Made by a program: the position numbers and the translations under genes | The notes under the pieces: generated by a model | What the model was told of the DNA's origin: nothing | Database searches by the model: none | The model's input: the letters and a program-made list of their open reading frames with translations, nothing else | Shown: in pieces, positions 21,423 through 42,203 of the stretch | Layout: each line of letters opens with the position of its first letter | Position numbering within the stretch: the stretch's first letter is position 1 | NCBI RefSeq assembly: GCF_005222755.1 | Contig: NZ_STGD01000009.1 | Span: 62,001-126,000 of the forward strand | Reading direction: 5' to 3' | From: Roseomonas sp. HF4 | Lineage (GTDB): Bacteria; Pseudomonadota; Alphaproteobacteria; Acetobacterales; Acetobacteraceae | Length of the DNA stretch: 64,000 bases

Positions 21423-23258
21423 TCAGTCGATGAACACCCGCGCCGCCAGCGCCACCTGGAACAGCGCCGTCACCAGGTCGGTCGCGAACTGCCAGTATTT
21501 CGGGTCGAGGTAGGGCAGCGCGATCAGCTCATCCCCCGGCCGTGGCGCCACGGCGGGGTTCAGGATCGCCTGGCCCGAGGGGCGGCGGAGCATCAGCGTG
21601 GAATTGTTCCCGCGCGGCGTCAGGCCGCCGGCCGCCTCGATGAACTGGGCCGTCGTCCAGCCCTCCCGCCAGACAACCGCCTGGGGGAAGTTCACCTCCC
21701 CCTGCACCATCACGGTCTGCGAGCGTTCGGGAATCACGACGATGTCGCCGTTCTGCAGCCGCAGCGGCGCGCAGGCGCCGTCCGCGCCCATCACGACGAG
21801 CCGGCCTTCCGGCTGCACGCGCCGGGCGCGGGAGATGTACTGGGAGATCAGCGCCGCTTCCTGCGACCGCGCCTCGGCCACCCGCGTGGTCGCGGCGGGC
21901 GCGAGGAAGAGCTGGCGTTCCAGCCGGTCGAGCGCCTCGTCGATCGCGCGCTTCTGCTGCAGCGCGAGGCCCGGGCGCAGGATGAACACGCCGTCGGTGT
22001 TCGCGAGCCCCGGGTCGACCGCGATGTGGTCGAGCAGGTTGCAGAGCGTGATGTCGCGGTCCGCCACCAGGACCGAGGGATAGAGCCTGCTGCCCTCGAC
22101 GCTGACGCGGATGGTGCGCGCCGCGACGTCGGCCACGAAGGTCACGGTGTCCTGGTCGAGCAGCGTCTGCTGCGCGAGTTCGGCCAGGGACATGTAGCGG
22201 GAGAAGGGCTGCGCGCTCCGCACGCCGCGCACCACCGCGTTCGTCGCGGCCGGCAGCGGTCGCGCGAGGTCGATCAGGTCGCGCCCCGAGAGCGAGGCGC
22301 GGCTTGCGCTCTCGAACAGGTAGTTGTTCCGGACGGCGCCGTCGGCACCGATCATCGCGCGCTGGCGGCCGACGACGATCGTGTCCCCTTCCTGCAGGCG
22401 CACGGCGGGCAGGCGCCCTTCGAGCAGGAAGCCGTAGAGGTCGGCGGTCGCGACGCTCTGGTTGTTGCGTCGGATGGCGATCTCGCGGTGCGAGCCGCGG
22501 CCGGGATCGACGCCGCCGGCCCGCACCAGGAAGTCGAGGATGCTGTCCGACGCCGTGCCCGCATAGCGCCCCGGTGCCCGCACGAAGCCCGTGACGAACA
22601 CGCCGATCCGCTGCGTCGAGAGCACGGTCGCATAGACCTGGACCTGGGCCGTGTAGACCTTGCGGATCTCGCTCTCGACCACCGCCTGCAGGTCGCCCAC
22701 GCGCGTTCCCGCCACGCGGATCGGGCCGATATTGGGCAGGAACAGGTTGCCGGCGGGGTCGATCACGCCGACCAGTTCCGATTCCACCGCGCCCCAGGCG
22801 CGCACGCTGACGCGGTCCCCCGGCGCAAGCACGTAGTTCGGGTTCGGCGCCTCGGAGGAGGCCTGCGGCGTCTGCGTGAACAGCGACGCGCCGAAGACCG
22901 TGGTCGCCGGTCCCGCCATGCGCGCCTGGTCGCCGAGCGGCGCCACGAGGGATGGCCCGCCTTCGGCCTGGGTCGGGCTGCCGAGGCGCTCGGTGCCGCG
23001 CGCCTGTCCGGGAATGTCGGCCAGGCTGCGCTGGTCGAAGACCGGCGGCGGCTGGGCGGCCGCTTCCCCCGCACCCGGCACGCCCGCCTGGGGGCCGCGC
23101 GGCAGCAGGTTCGGCAGGCCCGGCAGCGCGCCCGGCACGCCGCCGATGCCCTGCGGCAGCCGCTGCGCGCCGGATTGCGCGGCGGCCGTGCCGGCCCAGC
23201 CGAGGGCGAACAGGACCGCGAGGAGAAGCGCGAGGCCGCGCCGGGGGCTAGGCCGCAT
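21423..23258 (-). CDS. Capsule polysaccharide export protein with SLBB repeats (KpsD/Wza-like)
   Basis: A 611-residue periplasmic/outer-membrane export protein. The signal peptide (LALLLAVLFALGWAGTAAAQ) has no lipobox cysteine, as in KpsD rather than Wza. A proline-rich linker leads to the polysaccharide export domain (from about 165, YVLAPGDRVSVRAWG) and then SLBB beta-grasp repeats (VFVTGFVRAPGRY, VMVQGEVNFPQAVVW). It should form the outer-membrane end of the Kps channel. It starts at ATG 23258, inside the last codons of kpsE, and is the last gene of the leftward export operon. Confidence 0.9.
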   Translation of the reverse strand: MRPSPRRGLALLLAVLFALGWAGTAAAQSGAQRLPQGIGGVPGALPGLPNLLPRGPQAGVPGAGEAAAQPPPVFDQRSLADIPGQARGTERLGSPTQAEGGPSLVAPLGDQARMAGPATTVFGASLFTQTPQASSEAPNPNYVLAPGDRVSVRAWGAVESELVGVIDPAGNLFLPNIGPIRVAGTRVGDLQAVVESEIRKVYTAQVQVYATVLSTQRIGVFVTGFVRAPGRYAGTASDSILDFLVRAGGVDPGRGSHREIAIRRNNQSVATADLYGFLLEGRLPAVRLQEGDTIVVGRQRAMIGADGAVRNNYLFESASRASLSGRDLIDLARPLPAATNAVVRGVRSAQPFSRYMSLAELAQQTLLDQDTVTFVADVAARTIRVSVEGSRLYPSVLVADRDITLCNLLDHIAVDPGLANTDGVFILRPGLALQQKRAIDEALDRLERQLFLAPAATTRVAEARSQEAALISQYISRARRVQPEGRLVVMGADGACAPLRLQNGDIVVIPERSQTVMVQGEVNFPQAVVWREGWTTAQFIEAAGGLTPRGNNSTLMLRRPSGQAILNPAVAPRPGDELIALPYLDPKYWQFATDLVTALFQVALAARVFID

Positions 23259-24441
23259 GGTCCCGCATGCTGGCAACGAGCAGCCAGCCGATGCCGAAGG
23301 CGACGGAGAGACCCAGGAAGACGCTGCCGACACTGATCAGTTTCCGCGGATAGAGGGGATAGACGGCGAGGTTGGGCGCGACCACGCGGGCGACGTAGAG
23401 CTGCTGGCGCTGTGCATCCATTCGCGCCGTCTCGAGGCTGGCGGTGGCGGAGGCGAGCTGCCGGTCGGCGAATTCGCGTTCGAGCACCAGGCGTTCGTAG
23501 GATGCGAGCTGCTGCGCCAGCGTGCCGTTGCCCTGGGTGCGGCGCGTGCGCTCGGCCATGATCTGGCGCTCCAGCGCCTCGATCCGGTTGTGGGTCGCGA
23601 GCAGCGCCGGGTTGTCCGCGCGCATGAAGGCCATGCGTTCGCGCAGTTCCGCCCGCGCCCCGGTCAGCGTCGCCTCGAGCGCCGCGATGGTCTGCGCCGC
23701 CGCCGCCGCCGTGCCGGCGCTGTCGAGGTCCTGCTCGCGCTCCCGGAAGCCGGTCAGGGCCTCGCGCGCGGCGAGCACGCGGCGCTCGGCGATGCCGACC
23801 TCGGCATGGGCGATGCGCAGCGCATCCTCGCGCGCGCGTTCGGAGAGGCCGTTCACCAGGCCCTCGGAGAGTTCGAGCAGCGTCTCGGCGATCGCCTTCG
23901 AATCCTCGGGCCGGAAGCTGCGCACGCGCAGCGTCAGGAGCCCGGTCGAGCTGTCGAACACGGCCGAGACCATGGAGTTGTAGAACTTCGTCAGCCGCTC
24001 CGGGTCGCTGTGCGCGAGGCGCGCCCAGAAATCCGCTTCCTCCCGCTGCCAGATCGAGACGAGGTCGAGCCGGTCCTGCGCCCGCATCACCGCATCGTGG
24101 GAGAGCAGGAATTCCCGCACGCTGTTCGATTCGACCGAGGATGCGCCGCCGCCGCCGCCCATGGCCGAGGAGATCGCGCCGCTGAGCGAGACCGTCGGCG
24201 CCTCGGCGCGGGAGCGCACCACGATCCGCGTCTCCGAGACGTATTGCGGCGCCGCGACGAGGTAGAAATACGCCGCGACGATCGCCGTCGGCAGCAGCAC
24301 CCACCAGGTGAAGGGGTGGGCCATGAAGCGGTGCAGCCAGGACCTCGGTCGCGGCGGCGGCGACGGCGCCGCTTCGCTCCAGGCCGGGACCGCGTCCGCG
24401 GTCGTGCCGTCAAAGGCTGTTGTAGGTGGCGAGAGCTTCAT
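23248..24441 (-). CDS. kpsE: Capsule export inner-membrane protein KpsE (polysaccharide co-polymerase)
   Basis: A 397-residue PCP-3-type protein spanning inner membrane and periplasm. One transmembrane helix lies near residues 43-65 (TWWVLLPTAIVAAYFYL) and one at the C-terminus (GSVFLGLSVAFGIGWLLV). Between them are about 300 helical, coiled-coil-rich residues. These proteins link the KpsMT transporter to the outer-membrane exporter. It overlaps kpsT by 32 nt upstream and the SLBB gene by 11 nt downstream. Confidence 0.9.
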   Translation of the reverse strand: MKLSPPTTAFDGTTADAVPAWSEAAPSPPPRPRSWLHRFMAHPFTWWVLLPTAIVAAYFYLVAAPQYVSETRIVVRSRAEAPTVSLSGAISSAMGGGGGASSVESNSVREFLLSHDAVMRAQDRLDLVSIWQREEADFWARLAHSDPERLTKFYNSMVSAVFDSSTGLLTLRVRSFRPEDSKAIAETLLELSEGLVNGLSERAREDALRIAHAEVGIAERRVLAAREALTGFREREQDLDSAGTAAAAAQTIAALEATLTGARAELRERMAFMRADNPALLATHNRIEALERQIMAERTRRTQGNGTLAQQLASYERLVLEREFADRQLASATASLETARMDAQRQQLYVARVVAPNLAVYPLYPRKLISVGSVFLGLSVAFGIGWLLVASMRDHAA

Positions 24442-25048
24442 CGAGGTCTTCGTAGAATGTGAGGGTGCCCTGGTCCATGACGGCCGCGCGGGTGCAGAGC
24501 TGCCTGACCAGGGATGGCTGGTGCGTCACGATGATGAGCCCGGCGCGTTCCAGCCGCGCGGCGAAGGCCCTGCCGAACTTGGTGTCGCCGACCGCCAGCG
24601 CCTCGTCGACCAGGAAGCAGTCGAATTCGATCGCAAGCGAGATCGCGAGGCCGAGGCGCGAGCGCATGCCCGACGAATATGTCCCGACCGGCATCCGCAG
24701 GTATTCGCCGAGCTCGGCGAAGCTCTCGACGAACTCCACGGTCTCCTGCGCGGGGCGGCCGTAGATGCGCGCGATGAAGCGGCAATTGTCCTGCCCGGTC
24801 ATCGAGGACTGGAAGCCCGCCGCCATGCCGATCGGCCAGGAGACGCTCATGCTCCGCTTCACCGCGCCCCGGGTCGGTGCCTCGACGCCGCCCAGGATGC
24901 GCACCAGCGTCGACTTGCCCGTCCCGTTGCGGCCGAGGATGCCGACGCGCTCACCCTTCTCGAAGCGTGCGTTCACGCCGCGCAGCACCTGCTTGCGCCC
25001 GGTATTCATCGCGTAGGACTTGTGGACGTCGATGAGTTCCAGGCCCAT
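24410..25048 (-). CDS. kpsT: Capsule ABC transporter ATP-binding protein KpsT
   Basis: A 212-residue ATPase of the polysaccharide-export ABC family. Walker A is GRNGTGKST, the signature loop is YSSGMRSRLG, and Walker B is FLVDEALAVGD followed by the H-loop VTHQPSL. It energises export of the lipid-linked capsule glycan through KpsM. The length is normal for KpsT and there is no C-terminal carbohydrate-binding domain as in Wzt, so substrate choice likely depends on the lipid/Kdo end. It lies 8 nt after kpsM. Confidence 0.94.
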   Translation of the reverse strand: MGLELIDVHKSYAMNTGRKQVLRGVNARFEKGERVGILGRNGTGKSTLVRILGGVEAPTRGAVKRSMSVSWPIGMAAGFQSSMTGQDNCRFIARIYGRPAQETVEFVESFAELGEYLRMPVGTYSSGMRSRLGLAISLAIEFDCFLVDEALAVGDTKFGRAFAARLERAGLIIVTHQPSLVRQLCTRAAVMDQGTLTFYEDLDEALATYNSL

Positions 25049-25056: not shown

Positions 25057-25851
25057 CTATTCCAGCCCGATGCGGCGGCGCGCGACGCGCAGCCCCGCCA
25101 GGCCGATGAGGTGCGTGGCCAGGATCCAGGCGGCGACATAGGACAGGTCGTAGACCGGCCGGAAGCGGTCGCCGAACTGCCCGTCGCGCAGCAGTTCGAA
25201 GATGTGCACCATGGGCACCCAGATCACGATCTCCTGCATCCAGGTCGGCAGCCAGTCCACCATGAAGAACAGGCCGCTGAAGGGCATCGACAGGTATGTC
25301 AGGACGTGGATGCCGCGCTCGATCCCGTGCCATTCGCTCGTCGCCGCGCCGATCATCAGCGCGAAGCCCTGCGCCAGCAGGAACATCAGCCCCATCGCCG
25401 CCAGCATCTTCATGGGCGAGTCCGGGGCGTCGCCGCCGAAGGCGATGGCCGCGAAGACGAAGATCGCCATGACCCCCGTGCAGGCGACGGATTCGATCAG
25501 GTGCCGCGCGTAGAAAACGTCGGGCAGGGTGACCTGCCGGTGATAGAGCAGCTGCAGGCTCGACGGGATCGTGCCGGAGGACCGCGTCACGATGCCGCGG
25601 AAGTTGAAGAACAGCAGGTAGCCGATCGCGAAGAACTCGAAATTGCCGCGGATACCCTCGCCGCCGCTGCGGGTCTGGTGGATCAGCGCGATGGTGCCGG
25701 CCAGCAGCAGCGGCTCGGCGAACAGGGCCAGGTAGCCGAAGCGGCGGCGGCCGAAGCGGCTGTGCATCTCGCGGATCACGAGCGCGCCGATGACGCGCAG
25801 CTGTGCCCGCGCGCAGTCGATGAGCGGCGGTCGGGACGCCGCCTCGCTCAT
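25057..25851 (-). CDS. kpsM: Capsule ABC transporter permease KpsM
   Basis: A 264-residue ABC-2 permease with about six membrane segments. The cytoplasmic start ALVIREMHSRFGRRRFGYL is typical of KpsM/BexB. It pairs with KpsT to move the capsule glycolipid across the inner membrane. ATG 25851 overlaps the lipoprotein gene by 4 nt (ATGA), so the two are coupled. Confidence 0.93.
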   Translation of the reverse strand: MSEAASRPPLIDCARAQLRVIGALVIREMHSRFGRRRFGYLALFAEPLLLAGTIALIHQTRSGGEGIRGNFEFFAIGYLLFFNFRGIVTRSSGTIPSSLQLLYHRQVTLPDVFYARHLIESVACTGVMAIFVFAAIAFGGDAPDSPMKMLAAMGLMFLLAQGFALMIGAATSEWHGIERGIHVLTYLSMPFSGLFFMVDWLPTWMQEIVIWVPMVHIFELLRDGQFGDRFRPVYDLSYVAAWILATHLIGLAGLRVARRRIGLE

Positions 25852-26347: not shown

Positions 26348-28270
26348 ATGCCGCGGCAGGATAACAGAGCATTGCAACCAGAGCGTGCAGCCCCCGATGG
26401 GCCTGGCAGCCTCTTCGCCCCGCATGCCCTGCTGCGGCGCTGGCCCCATCTGCCGGCCTTCTGGCCCGGCCGGGCCGTCCGCCCGCCGCCGCCGCTGCCC
26501 GATGCCCGCGACCTGCTCGCCCTCGAGGTGGGGGGCCCGGTGCCCGCCGGATGGCCCGGTCGCGTGCTGCGGCTCGACGCCGGGCCTTTCGCGCCGACCT
26601 GCTTTGGCACGCGCATGGTGCCCCCGGTCCTGTTCGCCGCCGAATCCGACGACCCTGTCGCCGCCGCCCTGGCCGCCCCGCCTGGCGCCGCCGCGCGCGA
26701 CCGCGCCGCGGCGCTCCGCCCCCTGCTGCGGGCCGCGCGGGCCGGCGGCGCGCCCGGCCTGCCCGACCCCGGCCCTGCTGCGCTCGGCTGCGCGCCGGGG
26801 GAGGCGGTGCTGCTCCTTGACCCCTGCGATCCCGCCCGGGCCGAGGCGGCGGCGGCGCTGGCTGAGGCGGCCCGGGGCCGGGGCGGCCGCGTCCTCGCCA
26901 TCCGCGACCCGGCGATGCCGCCCGCCGCCCGGCCGGTGCTGGCCGGAACGCTCGACCGCCGCGTGTCGCCCTGGACGCTGATCGACGCGGCGGCCGAGAT
27001 CCACGCGCTGCCGGGGCCGACCGCGCGGCTGGCGACGCTGGCGGGCGTGCCCGTGCTCGGGTCGGGGGCGGTGGCGGACGGAATCGGGCTGCTGGCCGCC
27101 CTGGTCGGGGCCGCGCGCTGCGCCGACCCGGTGCGCGCCAGCCCCTGCACGATGGAGGAGGCGCTCGGCCTGCTTGCCGACTGGCGGCGCCAGGAGACGG
27201 CGAATCGCGGCATCGCGGTCTGCCTCGGCATGGCCTTCTGGAAGCGCCGCCGGATGGCCGCCGCGCTCGCCTCCGCCGCCGGCCCGCCGGCCTTCGCCCG
27301 CGGCACCGGGGCGGCGCTGGCCGAGGCCGCGCGCCGCGGCGGAGCCGTTGCGGTCTGGGCCAGCCGCGCGCCGGCCGACCTGCTGCCCCGCGCGCGTGCC
27401 GCCGGCGTGCCGGTGGCCTGGGTGGAGGACGGCTTCGTGCGCTCGGCCGGGCTCGGCGCCGGCTTCCTGCCGGCGGCCTCGATCAGCGTCGATTCGCGGC
27501 GGCCCTACTACGACCCGACGGGCCCCTCGGACCTCGAGGTGATGCTCGCGACCGCCGAGGTGCCGCCCGCGCTGCGCGCCCGCGCGGCGGCGCTGCGCGC
27601 GGCGCTGCTCGCCCGCGGCATCACCAAGTACAACCTCGGCGGCAGAGCGCCCGCGCTGCCCGCCACGCCGGGCCGCCGGCGCATCCTGGTCCCGGGCCAG
27701 GTGGAGGACGACCTGTCGGTGCTGCGCGGCGCGGCGCCGCCGGTCGCGGGCAACCTCGACTTGCTGCGCGCCGTTCGTGCCCTGCACCCGGACGCCTTCA
27801 TCGCCTTCAAGCCGCATCCGGATGTCGAGGCCGGCTACCGTCGCGGCGCCGTGCCCGCGGCCGAGGCGGCCGCTCTGGCCGACATCGTGCTCGACCGCGC
27901 GCCGATGGCGCCGCTGCTCGACCAGGTGGAGGAGGTGCACACCATCACCTCGCTCACCGGCTTCGAGGCGCTGCTGCGCGGCCGCGCCGTGACCTGCTGG
28001 GGCCGCCCCTTCTACGCCGGCTGGGGGCTGACCCTGGACCGCGCGCCGATCCCGCGCCGCACCCGCCGCCTCGACCTCGACGAAATGGTGGCCATCGCGC
28101 TGATCCTCTTCCCGCGCTACCTGGACCCGGTGACCGAACTGCCCTGCCCGCCGGAAGCCCTGCTCGAGCGCCTCGGCCAGCCCCAGGCCTGGCGGGGCGG
28201 CGCGCTGGCGCGGCTGCGTCGCTGGCAGGGCCGGGCCATGGCGCGCCTCCTGCCGGGGCGCGGCCCATGA
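26348..28270 (+). CDS. kpsC: Capsule Kdo-transferase KpsC
   Basis: A 640-residue cytoplasmic glycosyltransferase that, with KpsS, builds the poly-beta-Kdo linker on the lipid anchor of group-2 capsules. Classical KpsC has two related catalytic modules. The C-terminal module is clear: WVEDGFVRSAGLGAGF, FKPHPDVEAGYR, HTITSLTGFEALLRG and CWGRPFYAGWGL. The N-terminal half (about 1-265) is short and alanine-rich. At the matching place it reads SPWTLIDAAAEIHALPGPT and lacks the WGxPFYAGWGL motif, so this module may be inactive. ATG 26348 is the first good start after the divergent promoter region. The stop overlaps kpsS (ATGA). Confidence 0.88.
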   Translation: MPRQDNRALQPERAAPDGPGSLFAPHALLRRWPHLPAFWPGRAVRPPPPLPDARDLLALEVGGPVPAGWPGRVLRLDAGPFAPTCFGTRMVPPVLFAAESDDPVAAALAAPPGAAARDRAAALRPLLRAARAGGAPGLPDPGPAALGCAPGEAVLLLDPCDPARAEAAAALAEAARGRGGRVLAIRDPAMPPAARPVLAGTLDRRVSPWTLIDAAAEIHALPGPTARLATLAGVPVLGSGAVADGIGLLAALVGAARCADPVRASPCTMEEALGLLADWRRQETANRGIAVCLGMAFWKRRRMAAALASAAGPPAFARGTGAALAEAARRGGAVAVWASRAPADLLPRARAAGVPVAWVEDGFVRSAGLGAGFLPAASISVDSRRPYYDPTGPSDLEVMLATAEVPPALRARAAALRAALLARGITKYNLGGRAPALPATPGRRRILVPGQVEDDLSVLRGAAPPVAGNLDLLRAVRALHPDAFIAFKPHPDVEAGYRRGAVPAAEAAALADIVLDRAPMAPLLDQVEEVHTITSLTGFEALLRGRAVTCWGRPFYAGWGLTLDRAPIPRRTRRLDLDEMVAIALILFPRYLDPVTELPCPPEALLERLGQPQAWRGGALARLRRWQGRAMARLLPGRGP

Positions 28271-30281: not shown

Positions 30282-30424
30282 CGAACGCACCAAGGTCCGT
30301 CTTGCGGCCTGAAGGGCCGAGGCCGCGACTGCGGCCCGCCGGTTGTCCGGCGCAGCCAAGGGCCGCGGATGCGGCCCGCCCGGCGTCTGAGGGGCGCGAA
30401 GGTGAAACCTTCGTGCGCCAAGCA
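30282..30424. repeat. Palindromic intergenic repeat C, copy 1
   Basis: About 140 bases fill the gap between the SDR and LtaS-like genes. They contain four hairpins in a row: GGCCGCGACTGCGGCC, CGCCGGTTGTCCGGCG, GGCCGCGGATGCGGCC and CGAAGGTGAAACCTTCG. A closely matching copy lies at 45536-45684 in inverted orientation, and a fragment at 6969-7008. Confidence 0.8.
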
Positions 30425-33683: not shown

Positions 33684-36600
33684 TCCCCGGCCTCCACCAC
33701 GGCGGGTTCGTAGGCTTCCATCAGCGCCTGCACCGCCTCGTCCGTCCTGTCCTCAAGCACCACGCCGGCGATGCGGTTGGCAAGCACGGCGAGGGTGAGG
33801 TCCTCGGTCACGGCGGCGAGGGGCACCTGCACGCCGAGCCGTCGCTCCAGCGCCATGCGCAACTCGAGCCCGCCCAGGCTGTCGAGCCCGAGCCCCGCCA
33901 CCGGCGCATCGGCGCCTACGCTGCCGGCTGGCAGGCGGAGGATGCGCGCGATCTCCTCCTGCGCCAGGCGCAGCAGGCGGGCGCGCGCTTCCTCGGGCGG
34001 CAGGGCGCGCAGTTCTGCGCGCAGCTCCGCACCCTCCGCCGCCAACTCGGGCGCCGCGCGCACCGCGGCATAGGCGGGTTCGCGCAGGATCGGCAGCGCG
34101 GCGGACAGCCCGCCCCAGGCGACGCGCGCGAGGTGCACGACCGGCACCCCGGCGCCGAGCAGCGCGGGCAGCGCGGCCAGCGCCTCCTCGGCCGGCATCG
34201 GGGCGACGCCGGTGCGGCGTTCCAGCGTCTCGGCGGTCGCGGCGTCGCGCGCCAGCACGCCGGCATCGGCGATCGGCCCCCAGCCGACGGCCAGCGCCAC
34301 GCGCCCGTCCGCATGGCGGCGCCGCGCGATTGCCTCGAGCGCGGCATTGGCGGCGACGTAGTTCGCCTGGCCCGGATTGCCGAAGGCCGTGGTGGCCGAG
34401 GAGAACAGCAGGAACAGATGCAGCGGGTCCTCGCGCGTCAGCGCGTCCAGATGCTCCGCCGCCCGTTCCTTGGGGTCGAGCGCGACCGCGAAGCGCGCCG
34501 CGTCCATCGTCGCCGAGGCACCGTCGGCGAAGGCGGCGGCGGCATGCACCACGCCGCGGATCGGCGGGCCCTCGCGCCGCAGCCGCGCAAGCAGCGCCGC
34601 CAGCGCGGCATGGTCGGCCGCGTCGCAGGCCTCGATGCGGACGCGCGCGCCGAGCGCGGCCAGCCGCCGCTCCGCCGCCGCCGCGCCGGGCGTCGCGACG
34701 CCGCGGCGCGAGACGAGCACGACATGCGCCGCACCGTTCGCCGCGAGCCAGGTCGCGCAGGCCAGCCCGAAGCCCTGGGTCCCGCCGATGATCACGTAGG
34801 TGCCACCGGCCTCCGGCGCCCAGGCCGGCGCGGCGGCGCCGGTGGCGGCCGGCGGGCGGATCACGAGCTTGCCGATATGGGCGGAGGCCTGCAGGCGGCG
34901 GAAGGCGGCCTCGGCCTCCTCCGGCGCGAAGACCGCGTGCGGCAGCGGCAGCAGCGCCCCTTCGGCCAGCCGCGCCGCGATGTCCGCCAGCAGCGCCTGC
35001 GCGAGTTCGGGCTTCGCGCGCGGCAGCGCATCCGCATCCACCGCGAAGTAGGACACGTTGCGCCTGAGCGGCCGGAGCGCCGCGCGCCGGTTCTCGACGA
35101 AGTCGCGCTTGCCGAGTTCGATGAACCGCCCGAAGGGCGCCATCAGCCCGAGGGTGCGCTCCATCGCCTCCCCGGCCAGGGAATTCAGCGCGACATCGAC
35201 GCCATCGGGCCAGGCTGCGCGGAGCACGTCGGCGAAGCCGGCGTCGCGGCTGTCGAGCACGATCTCCGCCCCCGCCAGGCGCAGGAAGGCGCGCTTCTCG
35301 GCGCTGCCCGCCGTGGCCGCGACGCGCGCGCCCGCCGCCAGCGCCACCTGCAGTGCGGCAAGGCCGACGCCGCCTGCTCCGCCATGGATCAGCACGCGTT
35401 CCCCGGGGCGGATCCGCGCCAGTGTCTCGAGCGCATAGGCCGCGGTCAGGAAGGCGACGGGCACGGTGGCCGCCGCCTCGGGCGACAGGCCGTCCGGCAG
35501 CGGTGCCAGCGCCTCGGCGCGCGTCAGGGCGTGGGATGCGAAGGCGGCGGGGGCGAAGCCGAACACCGCCTGGCCCGGCCGGAGGGCGACGCCCGGCCCC
35601 ACGGCCTCCACCACGCCCGCGCATTCCATGCCGAGCGTCGGGCCGGCGAAGCCGTCCATCAGCGCGTCCTCGGGCAGCAGGCCCTGCGCCCACATCAGGT
35701 CGCGGAAATTCAGACCGGCAGCGAGCACGCGAAGCCGCACCTCCCCCGCGCCGGGTGCGGGCAGGGCGGGCTGCGGCGCCCAGCCAAGCGTGCCGATCTG
35801 GCCTGGCTGGCCGATCGCGAGCCGCGCCGCGCCGGACGCGGGCGCCGCCGGCAGGCCGGGCAGCAGGCGCGGCACGCGGCGCGACCCGGCCGAGATCTCG
35901 ACCTCCGGCGTCGCCGCGCCCAGTTCGGCCGCGAGCCGCCGCGCCGCCGCCTCCGGCCCGAGCGCCGGGTCCAGGGTGATGCGCCGGGGCGCCAGGCCCG
36001 GAATTTCGTTCGCCAGCACGCGGCCGAGGCCCGCCAGCGCACCCGCCGCGGCCGGCGTGCCGGCGCCGACCAGCACGAAGCCGGATGCCGCGCCGTCCGA
36101 CGCCTCGGCCAGGCGGGTCGCGGCGGCGAGCGTCCCGGGCAGCGGGTCGTCGGCGGCCAGCACGACGACCAGGCTGCCCTGGAGGTCGCGCGGGGCCGGC
36201 GTCGCGGCCAGCGCCTGCTGCTGCACCCGGTGGCCTTCGGCGCGCAGCGCGGCCTCCAGCGCCGCCGCAAGCGGCATCGCTCCCGGCGTGGCGGCGAGCA
36301 GGACGCGCCGCGGCGCGGCCGCCACCGGCAGCACGAGCGACGGCGCGCGCGTCGCGAGCAGCAGGGCGGGCCAGGGCGCGGCCGAGAGCGGCAGTGCCTC
36401 CGGCGCTTCGAACCCGGCTTCCGACAATGCGTGGCGCCAGGTGACGGCGTCGGGCAGCGCGCCCTCGCCACTCGCCCACCAGGCGGGATCCTGGCCGCAG
36501 GCGAAGTCCCAGAGGCGGCCGGGCGCGGGCTCGGCCAGGAGCACGAGCCCGCCCGGCGCGGCGAGGCCCCGCAGCGACCGCGCCAGCGCTGTGCCGTGCC

Positions 36601-39600
36601 GCTGCCGCGCACCGGCCGCGAGGCCGATCACGAGGTCGGCCGGCTCCCCCTGCGGCGCGTCCGGCGCGGTCCAGAGCAGGTCGATCCCCTCGGCGGCCAG
36701 CGGCGCTGCGCCGGCCCGCGCGTCCCCGGACGCGCGATACGCGACCTGCCGGCCGCTGGCGGCCAGCGCCGCCAGGGCGCGGCGCGTCAGCGCGCCGCCG
36801 GCGCCCAGTTCCAGGACGCGGAGCGGCCGCCCTTCCGGCCAGGCGGCGGCAAGCGCGCCGATCGCGGCGGCCATCACCTCGGCCAGCCGCTCGAAGGCGC
36901 CGCTGTCGGGCGGCTGCGGGGCGGCGGCGACGGCCTCCCCGGCCAGCGCGGCGGGCAGCGTCTCTGCCGCGCGGGCGAGCCACGCCATGTCGAGCGCGAG
37001 GCGCGGCTGTTCGGCCAGCACCGCGCGCCAGATCCCGGCCGGAGGCGGCAAGGGCTGGCCCTCGGCGACGCGCCAGCCGGCGGCGGTTTCCTCGGCGAGG
37101 CCGGTTTCGGCCAGCGCGCGCCAGAGCGCCTGGCGGTAGGGCCCGGCCAGCGGCGGCGCCGCGGGCAGCGCGGCCAGGGCGGCGGCGGCGGCGAAGCCTT
37201 CCAGCAGCAGCGCCGCCTCGGTCAGGTCGGCGGGGGCATCGGCGGCGCGGGCGGCTTCCAGCGCGGCGTCGGCGTCGGCCGGCGCGGCGGTGGCGGGCAG
37301 CGGCGGCGCCGGCACGGGGTCGAGCCGGAAGGCCATGCCGGCCGTGCCCGCCCGGCCGGGCAGGGCCAACCGCTGCAGCCAGACATCGGCGCAGGTCGCG
37401 ACAAGCCCGCCCTCGGCATCGCGGAGCGCCAGGTCGGCGGCGAGGAAGCGCGTCCCGTGCCGGGTCACCGTCAGGTCGGCGGTGGCCGGCAGCGCGGCGC
37501 CGCGGCGGGCGGCCAGCCGGCCGATCCGTACGGGCACGAGGCTCTCGCCCGCGTCCCGCGCGGCGCCGGCGAGCAGCGCGACCAGACCCTGCAGCGCGCC
37601 GTCGAGCAGCACGGGATGAAGAAGGAAACCGTCCGGCTGCGGCGCCGTCTCGGGCAGGCGGAGCATCACGCGGCCCGCTTGCGTCCCGGCCAGCACGCGC
37701 TCCACCGGCCGGAAGGCCGGTCCATAGTCGAGGCCGCAGCGGGCGGCCAGCGCCACCACCTCGACCCCCGGCACCTCGCGCCCGCCCGGCGCTGACGGCG
37801 CGGGCGCGGGGGGCAGGCGGGGCAGCGCGCCGATCCGCGCGCGCGCGGCCGGGCTCCAGGGTTCCTCTGCCAGGCGACGGCGGCTGTCGAGGGCGAAGGC
37901 GCCCTCGGCATCGGCGGTGACGCGGGTCTCGCGGCCGCGCCCGGGCTCGATCGGGACGGGGCGGAGGATGGCGAGGTCCGTGACCTCGAGCACGGCCGCG
38001 TCGGGGTGCAGCGCGGCAGCGGCGGCGAGCGCCATCTCCGCCATGGCGGCGGCGGGCAGCACCACCTCCCCCAGCAGCCGGTGGTCGTCGAGCCAGGGGT
38101 CGAGCGCGGCATCGAGCAGGCCGTGCCAGCGCCCGGGCTCGGCGCCGGCGCGGATGCCGAGCAGCCTGTGGTCGCGCTGCGGGTCGGTCAGCCGCGCGCT
38201 CTCGACCGTGCGGGGGAACCAGATGTGGGTCCGCGCGAAGGGCGTGAGCGGCAGGTCGCGCGCGGCGGCGCCCGCGAAGGGTTTCGCCCCGCGCGGGTCG
38301 GCGCCGCGCGCCGTGGCGCGGTCGGCGATGGCGGGGAACGGGTCGCCGGCCGCGTCCCGGCGCGTGAGGCTCGCCAGGATCGCGGCCTCGACCCCGTCCT
38401 CGCGCAGGCTCTCGCGCAGGTAGGATTGCAGGACGGGCGCGGGGCCGATCTCGAGGAAAAGGCGCGCGCCGGTGGCGGCGGCGGCGCGCGCGGCGTCGCC
38501 GAAGCGGACGGGCGCGCGCAGGTTCCGCCACCAGTAGGCGGCGCCCGCGTCCCGGCCATCCAGCACCGCGCCATCGACCGAGGAGACCATGGGCAGCCGC
38601 CCGGCCTGTGTCGCCAGCGCCGCGAGGTCGGCCAGCAGCGCGTCGCGCACCGGCTCCATCGCCGCGGCGTGGAAGGCGTAGTCGAGGTCGAGCGGCACGG
38701 CGCTGATGCGCGCCTCCCCCGCCGCGGCGCAGAGCCGTTCGATGGCCGCCGCCGGGCCGGCCACGGTGATCGCGGCGGGGCCGTTCACGGCGGCGATCTC
38801 GAGCCCCGGCCCGGCGGCGGCGAGCAGCGGTTCCGCCTCGGCCGGTGAGCACCCGATCGCGGCCATGCGCCCGGCGCCGCGCGTCGCGTGCTGGTGGCGG
38901 CTGCGCGCGACGATCAGCCGCGCGGCCTCCTCCATCGGCAGGATGCCGGCGCACCAGGCGGCCGCGACCTCGCCGACGGAATGGCCGAGCACGATTCCGG
39001 GCACGATGCCGTGTTCCGCCAGCGCGCCGACCACGCCCGCCTGCACGGCGAACAGCAGCGGCTGCGCGACGTCGGTGGCGGCGAGCGCCTCGGCGCCGAC
39101 GCCCCGCCGGAGCAGCGCATGGGGCGACCAGCCGAGCAGCGGCGCCAGCGCGCGGTCCGCCTTGCGGAGCGCGGCGCGGAAGGCGGGCGAGGCCGCCAGC
39201 GCCGCCTGCGCCATGCCGGCATGCTGCGCGCCGTTGCCGGAAAAGACGAAGGCGAGGCCGCCGCGCACGGCCTCCCCCTGCTCGGAGCCGGGCACGGCGG
39301 TCCCCGCCTGCCAGGCGGTGATCGCGCCGGCCAGCGCATCGCCGTCGGCGCCGCGCAGCACGAGCCGATGTGGCGCGAGGTCGCGGTTGCGCGCCACGCC
39401 GCGCGCGAGCATCGCGCAGCGCGCCGCATCGGTGCCGGGCAGGCGGTCGCGCCAGCGTGCCGCGAGCAGGCGAAGCTGCGCCTCGGACCGCGCCGAGAGG
39501 ATCAGCGGGGGCAGGCCGCGGCCCGGCGCGGGCCGTCGCACCGCGGCCTCCGGCGCGCGGCCCAGAAGCACGGTCGCGTTGGTGCCGCCGAAGCCGAAGG

Positions 39601-40861
39601 AATTCACGCCGACCACCGCATCCGGCGCGACCACGGCGGGGGTGAGGGAGGTCGCGACGGCCAGGTTCAGCCCGTCGAAGTCGATCTCGGGGTTGGGCTT
39701 GGCGAAATGCAGGGAGGGCGGCACGGCGCCGCGCTCGAGCATGAGCATGGCCTTGAGCAGCCCGGCCATGCCCGAGCCGGCCTCCAGGTGGCCGATGTTC
39801 GTCTTGACCGAGCCGATCGGCAGCGGCGCGGCGCGGCGCTGCGCGATGGTGGTGCCGATCGCCCAGGTCTCGGCCGGGTCGCCGACGCGCGTGCCGGTGC
39901 CATGCGCCTCGAAGGCCAGGAAGCGGTCGGGGGCGACGCCGGCGCGGGCGATCACGCGCTCCATCAATGCGGCCTGCGCCGCGCGGTCGGGCAGCGAGAG
40001 GCCGATGGTGCGCCCCGCCGCATTGGCGCCGCTGCCCAGCAGCACGGCGCGGATGCGGGCCCCGTCCGCCTGCGCGTCGGCGAGGCGCCGCAGCACGACC
40101 ACGCCCGCGCCCTCGGCCCGGACGTAGCCGTCCGCCGCCGCGTCGAAGGCGCGGCAGCGCCCGGTGGGGGAGAGCATGCCCGCGCGCGAGAACCCGATGA
40201 AGGAATAGGGCGAGAGCAGCATGCTGACGCCGCCCACCACCGCCGCTTCCAGGGCGGGGTCGGCCTCGAGCGCCCGTGCCGCGAGGTCGAGCGCGACGAG
40301 CGAGGAGGAGCAGGCCGTGTCCACCGTCTGCGCCGGGCCGCGCAGGTCGAAGACGTTGCCGATCCGGTTGGCCAGGATCGACAGCGCGTTGCCGGTCATG
40401 AAGAAGCGGTCGGCCGCCGCCGGGTCGGCCAGGCGGAGTTCGGCGTAGTCGGTCGAGGAACCGCCCATGAAGACCGCGATGTTGCGGCCGGCGATGCGTT
40501 CGGCCGGCCAGCCGGCATCCTCCAGCGCCTCGGCGGCCACCTCCAGCAGCAGGCGCTGCTGCGGGTCCATCTCGGCGGCCTCGCGCGGGGACAGGCCGAA
40601 GGCCATCGGATCGAAGCCGGCGGCATCGCCGATCGTGCCGGCGGCGAAGGTGTAGGCGCGGCCCGGCTCGCCCCGGCGCGGGTGCAGCCAGCGCGCCTGG
40701 TCGAAGCGATCGGCGGGGACCGTGGTGACGGCGTCCCGCCCCTCGGCCAGCAGCGTCCAGAAGGCGTCGAGGTCGGCGGCGCCGGGCAGCCGGCAGGCGG
40801 CGCCGAGGATGGCGACGCCCCCGGCCTCGCGACGCGGGCGGGGCCGCCCCGCCGCTCGCAT
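33680..40861 (-). CDS. Highly reducing type I polyketide synthase (RkpA-like)
   Basis: A single-module megasynthase of 2393 residues. Domains in order: KS (about 15-435; Cys184 in DTACSSS, His320 in EAHGTGT, His358 in NIGHLE), AT (about 535-830; Ser628 in GHSVGE, selectivity motif YAFH), DH (about 895-1180; His927 in DHRLLGEVVLP, partner Asp in HPVLLDGALQ), a methyltransferase-like region (about 1290-1500, weak motif ELGAGG), ER (about 1690-2000; HGGAGGVGLAAL), KR (about 2020-2240; NPGQANYVAAN) and ACP (Ser near 2329 in GLDSLGG). There is no thioesterase, so release likely occurs through the adjacent oxoamine synthase. ATG 40861 lies 31 bases after the glycosyltransferase stop. Confidence 0.93.
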   Translation of the reverse strand: MRAAGRPRPRREAGGVAILGAACRLPGAADLDAFWTLLAEGRDAVTTVPADRFDQARWLHPRRGEPGRAYTFAAGTIGDAAGFDPMAFGLSPREAAEMDPQQRLLLEVAAEALEDAGWPAERIAGRNIAVFMGGSSTDYAELRLADPAAADRFFMTGNALSILANRIGNVFDLRGPAQTVDTACSSSLVALDLAARALEADPALEAAVVGGVSMLLSPYSFIGFSRAGMLSPTGRCRAFDAAADGYVRAEGAGVVVLRRLADAQADGARIRAVLLGSGANAAGRTIGLSLPDRAAQAALMERVIARAGVAPDRFLAFEAHGTGTRVGDPAETWAIGTTIAQRRAAPLPIGSVKTNIGHLEAGSGMAGLLKAMLMLERGAVPPSLHFAKPNPEIDFDGLNLAVATSLTPAVVAPDAVVGVNSFGFGGTNATVLLGRAPEAAVRRPAPGRGLPPLILSARSEAQLRLLAARWRDRLPGTDAARCAMLARGVARNRDLAPHRLVLRGADGDALAGAITAWQAGTAVPGSEQGEAVRGGLAFVFSGNGAQHAGMAQAALAASPAFRAALRKADRALAPLLGWSPHALLRRGVGAEALAATDVAQPLLFAVQAGVVGALAEHGIVPGIVLGHSVGEVAAAWCAGILPMEEAARLIVARSRHQHATRGAGRMAAIGCSPAEAEPLLAAAGPGLEIAAVNGPAAITVAGPAAAIERLCAAAGEARISAVPLDLDYAFHAAAMEPVRDALLADLAALATQAGRLPMVSSVDGAVLDGRDAGAAYWWRNLRAPVRFGDAARAAAATGARLFLEIGPAPVLQSYLRESLREDGVEAAILASLTRRDAAGDPFPAIADRATARGADPRGAKPFAGAAARDLPLTPFARTHIWFPRTVESARLTDPQRDHRLLGIRAGAEPGRWHGLLDAALDPWLDDHRLLGEVVLPAAAMAEMALAAAAALHPDAAVLEVTDLAILRPVPIEPGRGRETRVTADAEGAFALDSRRRLAEEPWSPAARARIGALPRLPPAPAPSAPGGREVPGVEVVALAARCGLDYGPAFRPVERVLAGTQAGRVMLRLPETAPQPDGFLLHPVLLDGALQGLVALLAGAARDAGESLVPVRIGRLAARRGAALPATADLTVTRHGTRFLAADLALRDAEGGLVATCADVWLQRLALPGRAGTAGMAFRLDPVPAPPLPATAAPADADAALEAARAADAPADLTEAALLLEGFAAAAALAALPAAPPLAGPYRQALWRALAETGLAEETAAGWRVAEGQPLPPPAGIWRAVLAEQPRLALDMAWLARAAETLPAALAGEAVAAAPQPPDSGAFERLAEVMAAAIGALAAAWPEGRPLRVLELGAGGALTRRALAALAASGRQVAYRASGDARAGAAPLAAEGIDLLWTAPDAPQGEPADLVIGLAAGARQRHGTALARSLRGLAAPGGLVLLAEPAPGRLWDFACGQDPAWWASGEGALPDAVTWRHALSEAGFEAPEALPLSAAPWPALLLATRAPSLVLPVAAAPRRVLLAATPGAMPLAAALEAALRAEGHRVQQQALAATPAPRDLQGSLVVVLAADDPLPGTLAAATRLAEASDGAASGFVLVGAGTPAAAGALAGLGRVLANEIPGLAPRRITLDPALGPEAAARRLAAELGAATPEVEISAGSRRVPRLLPGLPAAPASGAARLAIGQPGQIGTLGWAPQPALPAPGAGEVRLRVLAAGLNFRDLMWAQGLLPEDALMDGFAGPTLGMECAGVVEAVGPGVALRPGQAVFGFAPAAFASHALTRAEALAPLPDGLSPEAAATVPVAFLTAAYALETLARIRPGERVLIHGGAGGVGLAALQVALAAGARVAATAGSAEKRAFLRLAGAEIVLDSRDAGFADVLRAAWPDGVDVALNSLAGEAMERTLGLMAPFGRFIELGKRDFVENRRAALRPLRRNVSYFAVDADALPRAKPELAQALLADIAARLAEGALLPLPHAVFAPEEAEAAFRRLQASAHIGKLVIRPPAATGAAAPAWAPEAGGTYVIIGGTQGFGLACATWLAANGAAHVVLVSRRGVATPGAAAAERRLAALGARVRIEACDAADHAALAALLARLRREGPPIRGVVHAAAAFADGASATMDAARFAVALDPKERAAEHLDALTREDPLHLFLLFSSATTAFGNPGQANYVAANAALEAIARRRHADGRVALAVGWGPIADAGVLARDAATAETLERRTGVAPMPAEEALAALPALLGAGVPVVHLARVAWGGLSAALPILREPAYAAVRAAPELAAEGAELRAELRALPPEEARARLLRLAQEEIARILRLPAGSVGADAPVAGLGLDSLGGLELRMALERRLGVQVPLAAVTEDLTLAVLANRIAGVVLEDRTDEAVQALMEAYEPAVVEAGE

Positions 40862-40892: not shown

Positions 40893-42203
40893 TCATTGCG
40901 CGCCGACCGGATCGGCGACCAGCGGCTCATGCGCGCGGTCGGCGGGCATGGCGGGCCTGCGGGCGGGAATGGCTTGGCGGAGCGGCGCGGCGGCGCGGTC
41001 CACCACCTCATCCAGCAGGGCATCGACGGCGGTGAAGTGGTCTTCCCAGCGGGGCGCCGACCACTGCGCGAGCCGTGCGACCTGCGCCGCGCGGGACCGG
41101 CTGCCCGGGGCGGCGTAGTCGAGCACCATGCGCCGCCAGCCGGCGCCGTCGAGCGGGTCGAGGTATTCCGGCACCTCGCCGCCCACTTCCCGCAGCGCCG
41201 GCAGGTCCGAGCAGATGGCCGGCGCGCCGAGCGCCAGCGCCTCGGCCAGCGGCAGGCCGTAGCCCTCGGCGAAGGAGGGGAACAGAAGCGCGCGGCTGCC
41301 GGCGAGCAGGCCGGCGACCTCCGGGTCGGACAGCGAGCCCGCTTCCTCCACCAGGCCGCGCAGCAGGGTGCAGCGGTCGAGCAGGTCGACCACGTTCTCG
41401 TTCTCCCAGCCGCGGCGGCCGACGAGGACGAGGCGCGGCGCGGCCGGGCCCCACTTCGCCGCGAAGTCGCGCCAGAGATGCAGGAGCAGCATGTGGTTCT
41501 TGCGCGGCTCGATCGTGCCGATCGCGACGAAATAGGGCGTGCCGCCGCCCGCGGCCGAGTCGGGCCGCATGGGATCGATCCCGAGCGGGGCCACGAGCAC
41601 CGGCGGGCAGGATGCCTGGCGGACGAGGTGCGGCTTCAGCACGGCGGCGGTCGCGCCGGAATTGACGATGATGCCGTCGGCGAGCGCCGCGACGGTCGCG
41701 AGGCGCTGCAGGTGCTGCATCGCGACGCCCGGCCGGGCATATTCGGGATGGGTGGCCGGGATGAGGTCGTGCACCAGGGGCACGAAGGCGGCGCCGGCGC
41801 GGCGCAGCGCATCGATCGGCCCCGGTTCCTCCATCAGCCGGTGGGAGACGAGGAGGAAGGCGCTGCGTCGCTCGCGCGCCAGGGTCGCGTCGAGCTGGCT
41901 GCGACCGCGGCCGATCGCCAGCCGCGCGAGGGCGAGAAGTCCCGTCCGGCGCGCCGCGCGGCGCGCGGCGGCGGCATCGGCGCCGCCCGACCAGGCGGCG
42001 TGCAACTGGCCCGCGAGGTCGGCGACGATGCCGCGCGGCAGCGCCGCATAGCCGCCGCGCGGGGCGCGCGCGACGAAGGTGACGGCGTCCTGCGGCGCGG
42101 CGAGCCAGCGCCGGGCATAGGCGACTTCGACGCGATCGATTCCCGAGGGGGCGCGGCGCCGCGGACAGCCGAGGAAGCGCGAGACATCCAGCAGAACGTG
42201 CAA
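40893..42203 (-). CDS. Glycosyltransferase family 4-type (capsule locus)
   Basis: A 436-residue GT-B enzyme. The C-terminal half has the family pattern: AIGTIEPRKNHMLLL, LVLVGRRGWENENV and the acidic SFAEGYGLPLAEALALGAP (EX7E). The N-terminus (HVLLDVSRFLG, PSGIDRVEVAYAR) matches mannosyl/rhamnosyl-transferase-like proteins of polysaccharide loci. I chose TTG 42203 because AGGGGG lies 6 nt upstream and the family starts there. It is first in the leftward glycosyltransferase-PKS-oxoamine-synthase operon and likely adds a capsule or anchor sugar. Confidence 0.85.
   Translation of the reverse strand: MHVLLDVSRFLGCPRRRAPSGIDRVEVAYARRWLAAPQDAVTFVARAPRGGYAALPRGIVADLAGQLHAAWSGGADAAAARRAARRTGLLALARLAIGRGRSQLDATLARERRSAFLLVSHRLMEEPGPIDALRRAGAAFVPLVHDLIPATHPEYARPGVAMQHLQRLATVAALADGIIVNSGATAAVLKPHLVRQASCPPVLVAPLGIDPMRPDSAAGGGTPYFVAIGTIEPRKNHMLLLHLWRDFAAKWGPAAPRLVLVGRRGWENENVVDLLDRCTLLRGLVEEAGSLSDPEVAGLLAGSRALLFPSFAEGYGLPLAEALALGAPAICSDLPALREVGGEVPEYLDPLDGAGWRRMVLDYAAPGSRSRAAQVARLAQWSAPRWEDHFTAVDALLDEVVDRAAAPLRQAIPARRPAMPADRAHEPLVADPVGAQ

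What the first reader, a model, noticed from the sequence alone, without database searches (positions are those of the whole stretch)
21423..42203. Capsule locus that pairs a Kps exporter with a polyketide synthase / oxoamine synthase / reductase set
Seen: a full Kps export set (SLBB protein, KpsE, KpsT, KpsM, KpsC, KpsS) flanks a single-module reducing PKS without thioesterase, an alpha-oxoamine synthase overlapping its stop codon, an SDR coupled to kpsS, and an LtaS-like transferase. Known: oxoamine synthases release acyl thioesters by decarboxylative condensation with an amino acid, and SDRs reduce the 3-keto product, as in sphingoid-base synthesis; rhizobial K-antigen loci carry a comparable PKS/oxoamine synthase/SDR set (rkpA-G-H, from memory). 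Inference: the cell makes a PKS-derived sphingoid-like amino alcohol that anchors or primes the capsule. This would be a distinct capsule lipid in an acetic-acid-type bacterium.
Basis: partly seen in the sequence, partly recalled or inferred. Interest (0 to 1): 0.82.

Follow-up and report, generated by a model that had tools for sequence, protein, structure and literature searches.

The report
Capsule locus with built-in sphingolipid pathway
This bacterium carries capsule export genes side by side with a small pathway that most likely makes a sphingolipid-like fat to hold the capsule in the membrane; the gene set is known from root-nodule bacteria, but which fat it makes has long been open and can now be tested.

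Summary
Window 21423-42326 of a Neoroseomonas-like Acetobacteraceae genome holds KpsD, E, T, M, C, S, an SDR, an LtaS-like enzyme, a GNAT, an alpha-oxoamine synthase (AOS), an iterative reducing PKS ending in an ACP, and a GT4. It is a new member of a known kind, the rhizobial rkp-1 (rkpA-G-H-I-J) locus. A 2025 paper shows that a PKS plus AOS pair in Pseudomonas fluorescens makes very long sphinganines and, by mass, phosphoglycerol sphingolipids; its main text never mentions capsules. Here the LtaS-like family profiles best to phosphoglycerol transferases (GacH, LtaP, LtaS), and KpsS-SDR-LtaS is a recurrent gene run. My reading: PKS+AOS+SDR make a sphinganine, LtaS adds phosphoglycerol, and KpsS uses this phosphatidylglycerol mimic as capsule acceptor and anchor. 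Linkage to kps genes was tested and holds (61 of 80 named relatives). In 120 family genomes, 45 of 48 capsule carriers have this AOS or canonical SPT, against 22 of 72 others. Against it: 19 of 31 AOS-plus-capsule genomes gave no LtaS hit, and LtaS domains usually face outward while KpsS is cytoplasmic. The anchor itself is not shown.

The parts
21423..23333 (-). KpsD-like outer-membrane export protein (Poly_export + SLBB); start may be internal
   Evidence: PF02563 3.3e-15, PF22461 2.5e-11
23248..24441 (-). KpsE-like inner-membrane PCP protein
   Evidence: TIGR01010 2.7e-69, 234 bits, below its cut-off of 437.5
24410..25048 (-). KpsT-like ABC ATPase
   Evidence: PF00005 6.7e-17
25057..25851 (-). 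KpsM-like ABC permease
   Evidence: NF050053 2.3e-22 (below cut-off), PF01061 3e-13
26348..28270 (+). KpsC-like beta-Kdo transferase; C-terminal module intact (QVEDD), N-terminal half degenerate
   Evidence: best PDB relative 6mgd, 4.9e-54, the monofunctional beta-2,7 enzyme; alignment
28267..29499 (+). KpsS-like first beta-Kdo transferase (QLEGD motif); S. meliloti RkpJ homologue 45%
   Evidence: NF050054 6.6e-54, below cut-off
29496..30278 (+). SDR, candidate 3-ketosphinganine reductase (RkpH/SgaC position)
   Evidence: PF00106 6.8e-33; S142, Y155, K159 invariant in 6 of 6; RkpH 28.7%
30424..31827 (+). LtaS-like (RkpI) candidate phosphoglycerol transferase
   Evidence: PF00884 5.6e-17; family profile hits GacH 4.8e-29; catalytic positions invariant; RkpI 31%
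31820..32380 (+). GNAT, candidate N-acyltransferase, in the gap that holds a formyltransferase or tandem GNAT in relatives
   Evidence: PF13508 1e-7, PF00583 3.3e-7
32364..33683 (-). alpha-oxoamine synthase (RkpG homologue 54.8%), candidate serine-condensing sphingoid-base synthase
33680..40861 (-). iterative reducing type I PKS KS-AT-DH-(degenerate MT)-ER-KR-ACP, no TE match (RkpA homologue, KS 52.5%)
40893..42326 (-). GT4 glycosyltransferase, start uncertain; co-directional next to the PKS in 19 of 21 neighbourhoods that reach the KS
   Evidence: PF00534 2.9e-14
42365..42871 (+). 4HBT thioesterase, often retained next to the GT4; role unclear, perhaps a neighbour only
   Evidence: PF03061 7e-20

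Best explanation
The locus is an rkp-1-type ABC-transporter capsule locus that makes its own lipid acceptor. (1) The PKS builds a saturated long acyl chain on its ACP (malonyl-type AT). (2) The AOS releases it by decarboxylative condensation with an amino acid, most likely L-serine, to a 3-ketosphinganine. (3) The SDR reduces it to a sphinganine-type base. (4) The amine may be capped by the GNAT (formyltransferase or tandem GNAT in relatives). (5) The LtaS-like enzyme transfers phosphoglycerol from phosphatidylglycerol to the 1-hydroxyl, giving a phosphoglycerol sphingolipid, which looks to KpsS like its usual (lyso)phosphatidylglycerol acceptor. (6) KpsS adds the first beta-Kdo and the one intact KpsC module extends it; the GT4 may start the capsule chain. 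(7) KpsMTED exports the product, held by the sphingolipid. Shown by others for another species: steps 1-2 and the sphinganine product, with the phosphoglycerol form proposed from mass and step 3 presumed. Shown here: gene content, motifs, conservation, co-occurrence. Inferred for this bacterium: every step.
For: PfSgaA/PfSgaB make C24-C28 sphinganines and probable phosphoglycerol sphingolipids; [quoted passage not shown] The paper's 22-nt sgaA forward primer matches 22 of 22 bases at the start of the PKS frame of L134, whose neighbours are PhyH-KpsC-GNAT-LtaS-SDR-KpsS-KpsC; SgaC is five locus-tag steps from sgaB (tags), as the SDR is from the AOS on the annotated Pseudomonas plasmid L111. Closest PDB sequences to the AOS are SPTs, 9.4e-71. 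The LtaS family profile finds 8 PDB sequences: 7 phosphoglycerol/LTA-type enzymes and 1 uncharacterised. kps linkage in 61 of 80 named relatives. Phylum sample, own genome included: 11 of 13 genomes with RkpG-type AOS have Capsule_synth against 36 of 286 others, p 3e-8. Family sample: capsule carriers with AOS or SPT 45 of 48, others 22 of 72; in SPT-less genomes capsule 27 of 32 with AOS, 3 of 53 without, p 6e-14. LtaS in 27 of 48 capsule genomes and 1 of 72 others. In the KpsS tree the LtaS-bearing Acetobacteraceae, all but G107, group apart from the LtaS-less ones. (lyso)PG as KpsS acceptor: PMC10148158.
Against: 19 of 31 AOS-plus-capsule family genomes gave no LtaS hit, so the phosphoglycerol step is not general unless the search missed them (only the best 12 first-look candidates per genome were scored); their KpsS is another subtype. 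LtaS also sits beside KpsC/KpsS in genomes without AOS (12 of 12 looked at, of 15); I read this as use of canonical SPT product, but that was argued after the fact. LtaS-type catalytic domains normally lie outside the cytoplasmic membrane and KpsS inside (recalled), so a flip or another order is needed. AOS-PKS-SDR sets occur without kps genes in the fetched stretch (e.g. G397, G394, G364, G096, G006). Genome samples share ancestry, so the p-values overstate independence; 17 of 35 SPT genomes lack Capsule_synth. In NCBIfam the AOS scores better against bioF and kbl than SPT models, all below cut-off. Substrate and product of the window enzymes are untested.
Confidence: 0.55

Rival explanations
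1. Rkp-1-type locus making a sphinganine-type lipid carrier, but the LtaS-like enzyme decorates the exported polysaccharide with phosphoglycerol (as GacH does on a cell-wall polysaccharide) and KpsS acts directly on the (N-acyl) amino alcohol or on ordinary lyso-PG.
For: Best profile hit GacH acts on a polysaccharide (role recalled; hit); outward-facing LtaS topology fits; 19 of 31 AOS-plus-capsule genomes gave no LtaS hit; LtaS also accompanies KpsC/KpsS where no AOS exists.
Against: KpsS-SDR-LtaS and LtaS-PKS-AOS runs recur across classes; probable phosphoglycerol sphingolipids were found in the Pseudomonas strain.
Confidence: 0.25
2. The PKS/AOS/SDR set makes a secreted or membrane sphingolipid of its own and only happens to share a genomic island with capsule genes; capsule uses lyso-PG as in E. 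coli.
For: The published Pseudomonas product was described as a secondary metabolite; some sets lie away from kps genes.
Against: Gene order KpsC-KpsS-SDR-LtaS-PKS-AOS in unrelated groups; strong co-occurrence; rkp-1 is reported as involved in K-antigen export and required for Kdo polymer secretion (PMC4881576 passages).
Confidence: 0.13
3. The AOS condenses glycine or alanine, giving a 1-deoxy amino ketone/alcohol that cannot take a 1-O headgroup; the GNAT or formyltransferase product is the anchor.
For: AOS scores best against bioF and kbl among NCBIfam models, all below cut-off; LtaS-less loci have a formyltransferase or tandem GNAT right after the AOS.
Against: PfSgaB is serine-specific; RkpG and three other AOS of capsule loci show the same below-cut-off profile; nearest PDB sequences are SPTs.
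Confidence: 0.07

Closest known systems
Sinorhizobium rkp-1 region (rkpU, rkpA, rkpG, rkpH, rkpI, rkpJ), K-antigen
   Same: Same five core genes: KS 52.5%, AOS 54.8%, SDR 28.7%, LtaS-like 31.4%, KpsS-like 45.5% identity to S. meliloti Ak57
   Different: Window adds KpsM/T/E/C, a GNAT and a GT4 in the same locus and splits the set onto two strands; no match to the window GNAT or GT4 in the 29-kb S. meliloti stretch
Pseudomonas fluorescens MYb115 PfSgaA/B/C (PMC12134224)
   Same: PKS + AOS + SDR; very likely the same locus type, since near Pseudomonas loci carry KpsC-GNAT-LtaS-SDR-KpsS beside the pair
   Different: Published as a sphingolipid secondary-metabolite cluster; 0 occurrences of capsul in the main text; no headgroup enzyme named in the sections read (7, 8, 15)
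Burkholderia wcb capsule cluster (WcbR PKS)
   Same: PKS-containing capsule cluster described as orthologous to rkp (PMC3908369 passages)
   Different: Not compared gene by gene here
E. coli group 2 capsule (KpsMTEDCS)
   Same: Export set and KpsS/KpsC Kdo transferases
   Different: Two-module KpsC and (lyso)PG acceptor; no PKS/AOS/SDR/LtaS genes (recalled)
Canonical bacterial SPT ceramide pathway (acpR-spt-aasR, epi, aca)
   Same: Sphingoid base by an AOS-family enzyme, then reduction and N-acylation
   Different: Acyl chain from a dedicated ACP (PMC9386255 passages), not a PKS; SPT copies form a separate group in the tree

Membership tests
rkp-1-type capsule lipid locus | RkpA-like multidomain synthase | tested here: met
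   KS 52.5%, AT 37.9%, ER-KR-ACP 43.2% to L109
rkp-1-type capsule lipid locus | RkpG-like AOS translationally coupled to it | tested here: met
   54.8% over 409 aa; 4-nt overlap
rkp-1-type capsule lipid locus | RkpH-like SDR and RkpI-like LtaS family protein | tested here: met
   28.7% (E 1.4e-19) and 31.4% (E 6.4e-38); identity low, other SDRs could score alike
rkp-1-type capsule lipid locus | RkpJ-like KpsS | tested here: met
   45.5%, E 2.6e-98
rkp-1-type capsule lipid locus | needed for capsule production | not testable with these tools
   no mutants
Group 2-like ABC-transporter capsule | KpsM/T, KpsE, KpsD present | tested here: met
   the NCBIfam KpsM and KpsE models are hit below their cut-offs
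Group 2-like ABC-transporter capsule | KpsS with QXXXD nucleophile motif | tested here: met
   QLEGD in translation; motif from PMC10148158
Group 2-like ABC-transporter capsule | KpsC with two active Kdo modules | tested here: not met
   N-terminal half lacks the QXXXD stretch, C-terminal has QVEDD
Group 2-like ABC-transporter capsule | (lyso)PG-poly-Kdo terminus | not testable with these tools
   needs purified capsule
Canonical serine palmitoyltransferase | reaches an SPT family cut-off | tested here: not met
   303/640, 281/500, 224/670 bits; separate in tree
PfSgaABC sphingolipid pathway | iterative PKS + AOS + KDSR-like SDR | tested here: met
   domain content; SgaA/B/C sequences were not in hand, so no direct comparison
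PfSgaABC sphingolipid pathway | AOS uses L-serine, makes sphinganine | not testable with these tools
   needs assay
LtaS/GacH phosphoglycerol transferases | sequence profile match over the catalytic domain | tested here: met
   GacH 4.8e-29, LtaP 8.8e-19, LtaS 8.1e-10 with a profile of 7 family members
LtaS/GacH phosphoglycerol transferases | metal ligands and catalytic Thr | tested here: met
   E218, T257, D418, H419 invariant in 7 of 7; their roles are recalled
LtaS/GacH phosphoglycerol transferases | NCBIfam LtaS equivalog | tested here: not met
   window protein: 0 families at 0.001

The most novel reading that the evidence does not exclude
Many proteobacterial capsules are anchored by a sphingolipid: the rkp-1/wcb/sga gene set is one pathway making a phosphoglycerol sphingolipid by PKS, AOS, SDR and an LtaS-type headgroup transferase, used by KpsS in place of lyso-PG; in acetic acid bacteria the same KpsS/LtaS pair draws on canonical SPT instead. 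The published worm-protective Pseudomonas sphingolipids would then be capsule-anchor precursors.
Probability: 0.42. Interest if true: 0.82.

Novelty: new member of a known kind. Interest (0 to 1): 0.6.

Why it matters
In the passages I saw, the rkp-1 lipid is described only as a specific lipid carrier or lipophilic molecule; the lipid anchors that the capsule papers seen here name are (lyso)PG-Kdo and the Vi lipid. Joining the rkp-1 genes with the 2025 sphingolipid biochemistry gives a concrete structure, names a candidate for the missing headgroup enzyme, and makes the anchor question testable by lipidomics in ordinary laboratory strains. It would also give bacterial PKS sphingolipids a cell-surface role.

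Tried and rejected

Limits: L142 and L137 could not be placed on one contig with a kps gene and are not counted as linked. In one search the script listed L137 and L142 and missed L194; mended. The AOS tree node joining window, RkpG and Pseudomonas has low support, 0.286; the KpsS tree was midpoint-rooted and I quote no support from it. AOS orthologue sets were cut by eye at 45% identity and E 1e-115; with the 18 AOS genomes at E 1e-75, 12 of 18 carry Capsule_synth, and without the own genome the stricter set is 10 of 12. SPT calls used a score gap (417 bits and more against 267 and less); none passed the curated cut-off of 670. One of the 48 capsule genomes, G076, rests on a weak fragment (E 3.5e-4). 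The genome search scored only part of its first-look candidates in larger genomes (12, 14), so misses are possible. One planned Foldseek search did not run.

Papers: PMC12134224 outline with abstract, sections 7, 8, 15 and passages; PMC10148158 outline with abstract and passages; passages only of PMC3908369, PMC7902896, PMC3557214, PMC9386255, PMC12220298, PMC4881576. Kiss 1997 not held and Petrovics 1993 not sought; both seen only as references. I found no paper joining PKS sphingolipids with capsules among the listed results of searches (55 listed 20 of 29, 96 listed 20 of 57) of an open-licence library; that is weak evidence of absence.
Full report
OBSERVATION. Window positions 21423-42326 hold, in order, kpsD, kpsE, kpsT, kpsM on the minus strand; kpsC, kpsS, SDR, LtaS-like, GNAT on the plus strand; AOS, PKS and GT4 on the minus strand. 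Family assignments come from Pfam and NCBIfam. kpsC/kpsS, kpsS/SDR and PKS/AOS overlap by 4 nt. The PKS has KS (DTACSS, HGTGT, NIGHLE), AT (GHSVGE, YAFH, read as malonyl-type from recalled motif rules), DH, ER, KR and ACP motifs and a degenerate methyltransferase-like stretch; no thioesterase family matched. The nearest named relatives of the AOS are from Neoroseomonas and Roseomonas.

KNOWN KIND. tblastn of the window proteins against an annotated S. meliloti Ak57 record gives RkpA-like synthase (KS 52.5%), AOS 54.8%, SDR 28.7%, LtaS-like 31.4% and KpsS-like 45.5% identity, in the order U-A-G-H-I-J. The rkp names there are my assignment from the order in the literature; the record does not carry them and its table leaves the rkpI frame unannotated. 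Reviews say rkp-1 products make and modify a specific lipid carrier for K-antigen (PMC4881576, PMC3557214 passages) and that Burkholderia wcb clusters are orthologous (PMC3908369 passages). So the window locus is a member of this kind.

WHAT THE LIPID IS. PMC12134224 (sections 7, 8, 15 read) shows for P. fluorescens MYb115 that PKS SgaA and AOS SgaB give C24-C28 sphinganines, that SgaB condenses L-serine with acyl-CoAs with virtually exclusive preference over alanine and glycine, that an SDR (SgaC) is the presumed reductase, and that lipids 154 Da heavier are most likely phosphoglycerol sphingolipids. The word stem capsul has 0 occurrences in its main text. The 22-nt sgaA forward primer printed there matches L134 (a Pseudomonas putida contig) at 22 of 22 bases at the start of its PKS frame; the other two primers match at the expected gene ends with 4 and 6 mismatches, the latter near chance. 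L134 reads PKS-AOS, then on the other strand PhyH-KpsC-GNAT-LtaS-SDR-KpsS-KpsC. On plasmid pL21564-1 the SDR is the fifth gene after the AOS, as SgaC is five locus-tag steps from SgaB. I infer that the published cluster is itself a capsule locus; the MYb115 record was not opened.

THE AOS. Its closest PDB sequences are serine palmitoyltransferases (9.4e-71), then 2-amino-3-ketobutyrate ligases. In NCBIfam it lies below the cut-offs of bioF (347 of 426 bits), kbl and three SPT models; RkpG and the AOS of L111, L110 and L134 behave alike. In a tree with canonical SPT of four family genomes the SPTs form a separate group; the inner node that joins window, RkpG and Pseudomonas has support 0.286.

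HEADGROUP. A profile of seven LtaS-like family members hits 8 PDB sequences at 0.001: two GacH-type phosphoglycerol transferases (4.8e-29, 4.9e-29), LtaP, four LTA synthases and one uncharacterised chain. E218, T257, D418 and H419 of the window protein are invariant in 7 of 7. The window protein alone matches LtaP weakly (3.6e-5) and no NCBIfam family. Hydropathy gives an N-terminal membrane part before the catalytic domain, so an outward-facing site is likely; this conflicts with a cytoplasmic KpsS unless the lipid is flipped. KpsS acceptor being (lyso)PG in E. coli is from PMC10148158.

AMINE SLOT. In 24 of 35 fetched family neighbourhoods the next recognised gene after the AOS is a formyltransferase-like gene (14) or a tandem-GNAT gene (10), never both there; two of the 14 and two of the 10 are the query copies themselves. 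One more has the formyltransferase and three have weak GNAT matches at other places. Pfam gives PF00551 for the first and nothing for the second; the model of the second has a tandem GNAT fold. The window has a single GNAT in the same gap on the other strand; the same-genus G104 has the formyltransferase. Interchange of unrelated amine acylators fits an amino lipid product.

LINKAGE. Family level: 24 of 35 relatives with the AOS (45% identity or more; six genomes with weaker AOS dropped) have a kps gene in the fetched stretch; five of the 11 without are on short contigs or short fetches, and G011 and G059 carry their kps genes elsewhere. Named level: of 80 loci, 38 hold a KpsS, C, M, T or E match; of the other 42, 41 genomes were searchable and 36 have Capsule_synth; for 23 of these the gene was fetched within about 12 kb beyond the held locus, on the same contig by shared sequence. 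Total 61 of 80. These 80 were chosen by likeness to a capsule-linked Pseudomonas AOS, so they are not random. Phylum sample (299 genomes, own included): RkpG-type AOS 13, Capsule_synth 47, both 11, p 3e-8; without the own genome 10 of 12; loosening to 18 AOS genomes gives 12 of 18. In that sample KpsS or KpsC lies in the fetched stretch in 5 of the 11 non-own genomes fetched, KpsM/T/E in one more. Class sample: 14 of 289 genomes have an AOS at E 1e-75; of the ten whose stretch I fetched and that are not the own genome, six show KpsS or KpsC or KpsM/T/E and four (G397, G394, G364, G258) none.

SPHINGOID SUPPLY. In 120 family genomes: AOS 36, Capsule_synth 48, canonical SPT (score gap) 35, LtaS 28. 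Capsule carriers with AOS or SPT: 45 of 48; non-carriers 22 of 72, p 1.4e-12. Among 85 SPT-less genomes capsule occurs in 27 of 32 with AOS and 3 of 53 without, p 5.7e-14. Of 17 capsule carriers without AOS, 14 have SPT. LtaS is in 12 of 31 AOS-plus-capsule, 15 of 17 capsule without AOS, and 1 of 72 without capsule. The three carriers with neither AOS nor SPT are G074, G087 and G099. Shared ancestry inflates these values.

KPSS SUBTYPES. In a midpoint-rooted tree of 81 KpsS proteins nine LtaS-bearing Acetobacteraceae (window, G104, G028, G042, G010, Acidisoma, G008, G022, G025) group apart from a set of 18, of which 17 lack LtaS and one, G107, has it on another contig. Labels of short fetched pieces in that tree reflect the piece, not the genome, and KpsS of the stretches fetched are not in it. 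This fits a KpsS specificity that follows the headgroup, but also plain descent.

KPSC. The active module resembles the monofunctional beta-2,7 enzyme 6MGD. The N-terminal half aligns to the first module of two-module Pseudomonas KpsC but lacks the nucleophile stretch. The Kdo linker may therefore be short; this is inference.

VERDICT. A real, intact locus of a known kind, with a mechanism that can now be stated and tested. My estimates: sphingoid product about 0.85, capsule link about 0.9, phosphoglycerol step by LtaS about 0.6, use as KpsS acceptor and anchor about even.

Noticed in passing
window 30286-30428 and 45531-45673; 20328-20485 and 44755-44911; 20445, 52783, 55270, 59454, 61317: GC-rich repeats in several copies and both orientations; one copy (143 nt, 92%) fills the SDR-LtaS gap inside the otherwise tightly packed plus-strand run.
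   Followed up: partly
window 53417-53982 and 54352-54917: Two direct copies (about 75% identical) 935 nt apart, apparently a tandem duplication.
   Followed up: no
L111 (Pseudomonas sp. TMW 2.1634 plasmid pL21564-1): A plasmid typed as mobilizable carries PKS, AOS, SDR, LtaS, KpsS and two KpsC genes plus KdsA/KdsB/KpsF: a possibly mobile capsule system.
   Followed up: partly
L110 and 10 of 80 named loci (e.g. L171, L180, L198): An LpxC-like deacetylase sits between PKS and AOS; its substrate there is unknown.
   Followed up: no
L112 and G010 neighbourhood (L118): An RkpG-related AOS with an SDR and, in Acidisoma, a fatty-acid hydroxylase but no PKS match, beside LtaS, KpsC and KpsS: a third possible route to the base.
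   Followed up: partly
L113 (Streptomyces anthocyanicus plasmid): KS-AT and AOS fused in one 1607-aa protein with no capsule genes among the annotated neighbours.
   Followed up: no
L111, L134, L135, L136: Two KpsC genes in L111, L134 and L135, and a phytanoyl-CoA dioxygenase-like gene next to the AOS in L111, L134 and L136.
   Followed up: no
G000:C31:11565-12653 (L108): A second AOS-family gene in the window's genome (44% identical), below the cut-offs of bioF, kbl and SPT models.
   Followed up: partly
G118 (L268): The only LtaS-family hit in 72 capsule-less family genomes; no kps or AOS match in 16 kb around it.
   Followed up: partly
L109 (CP090106.1): The S. meliloti record is titled pSymB but is 3.72 Mb long and carries secD; it may be the chromosome under a plasmid title.
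   Followed up: no
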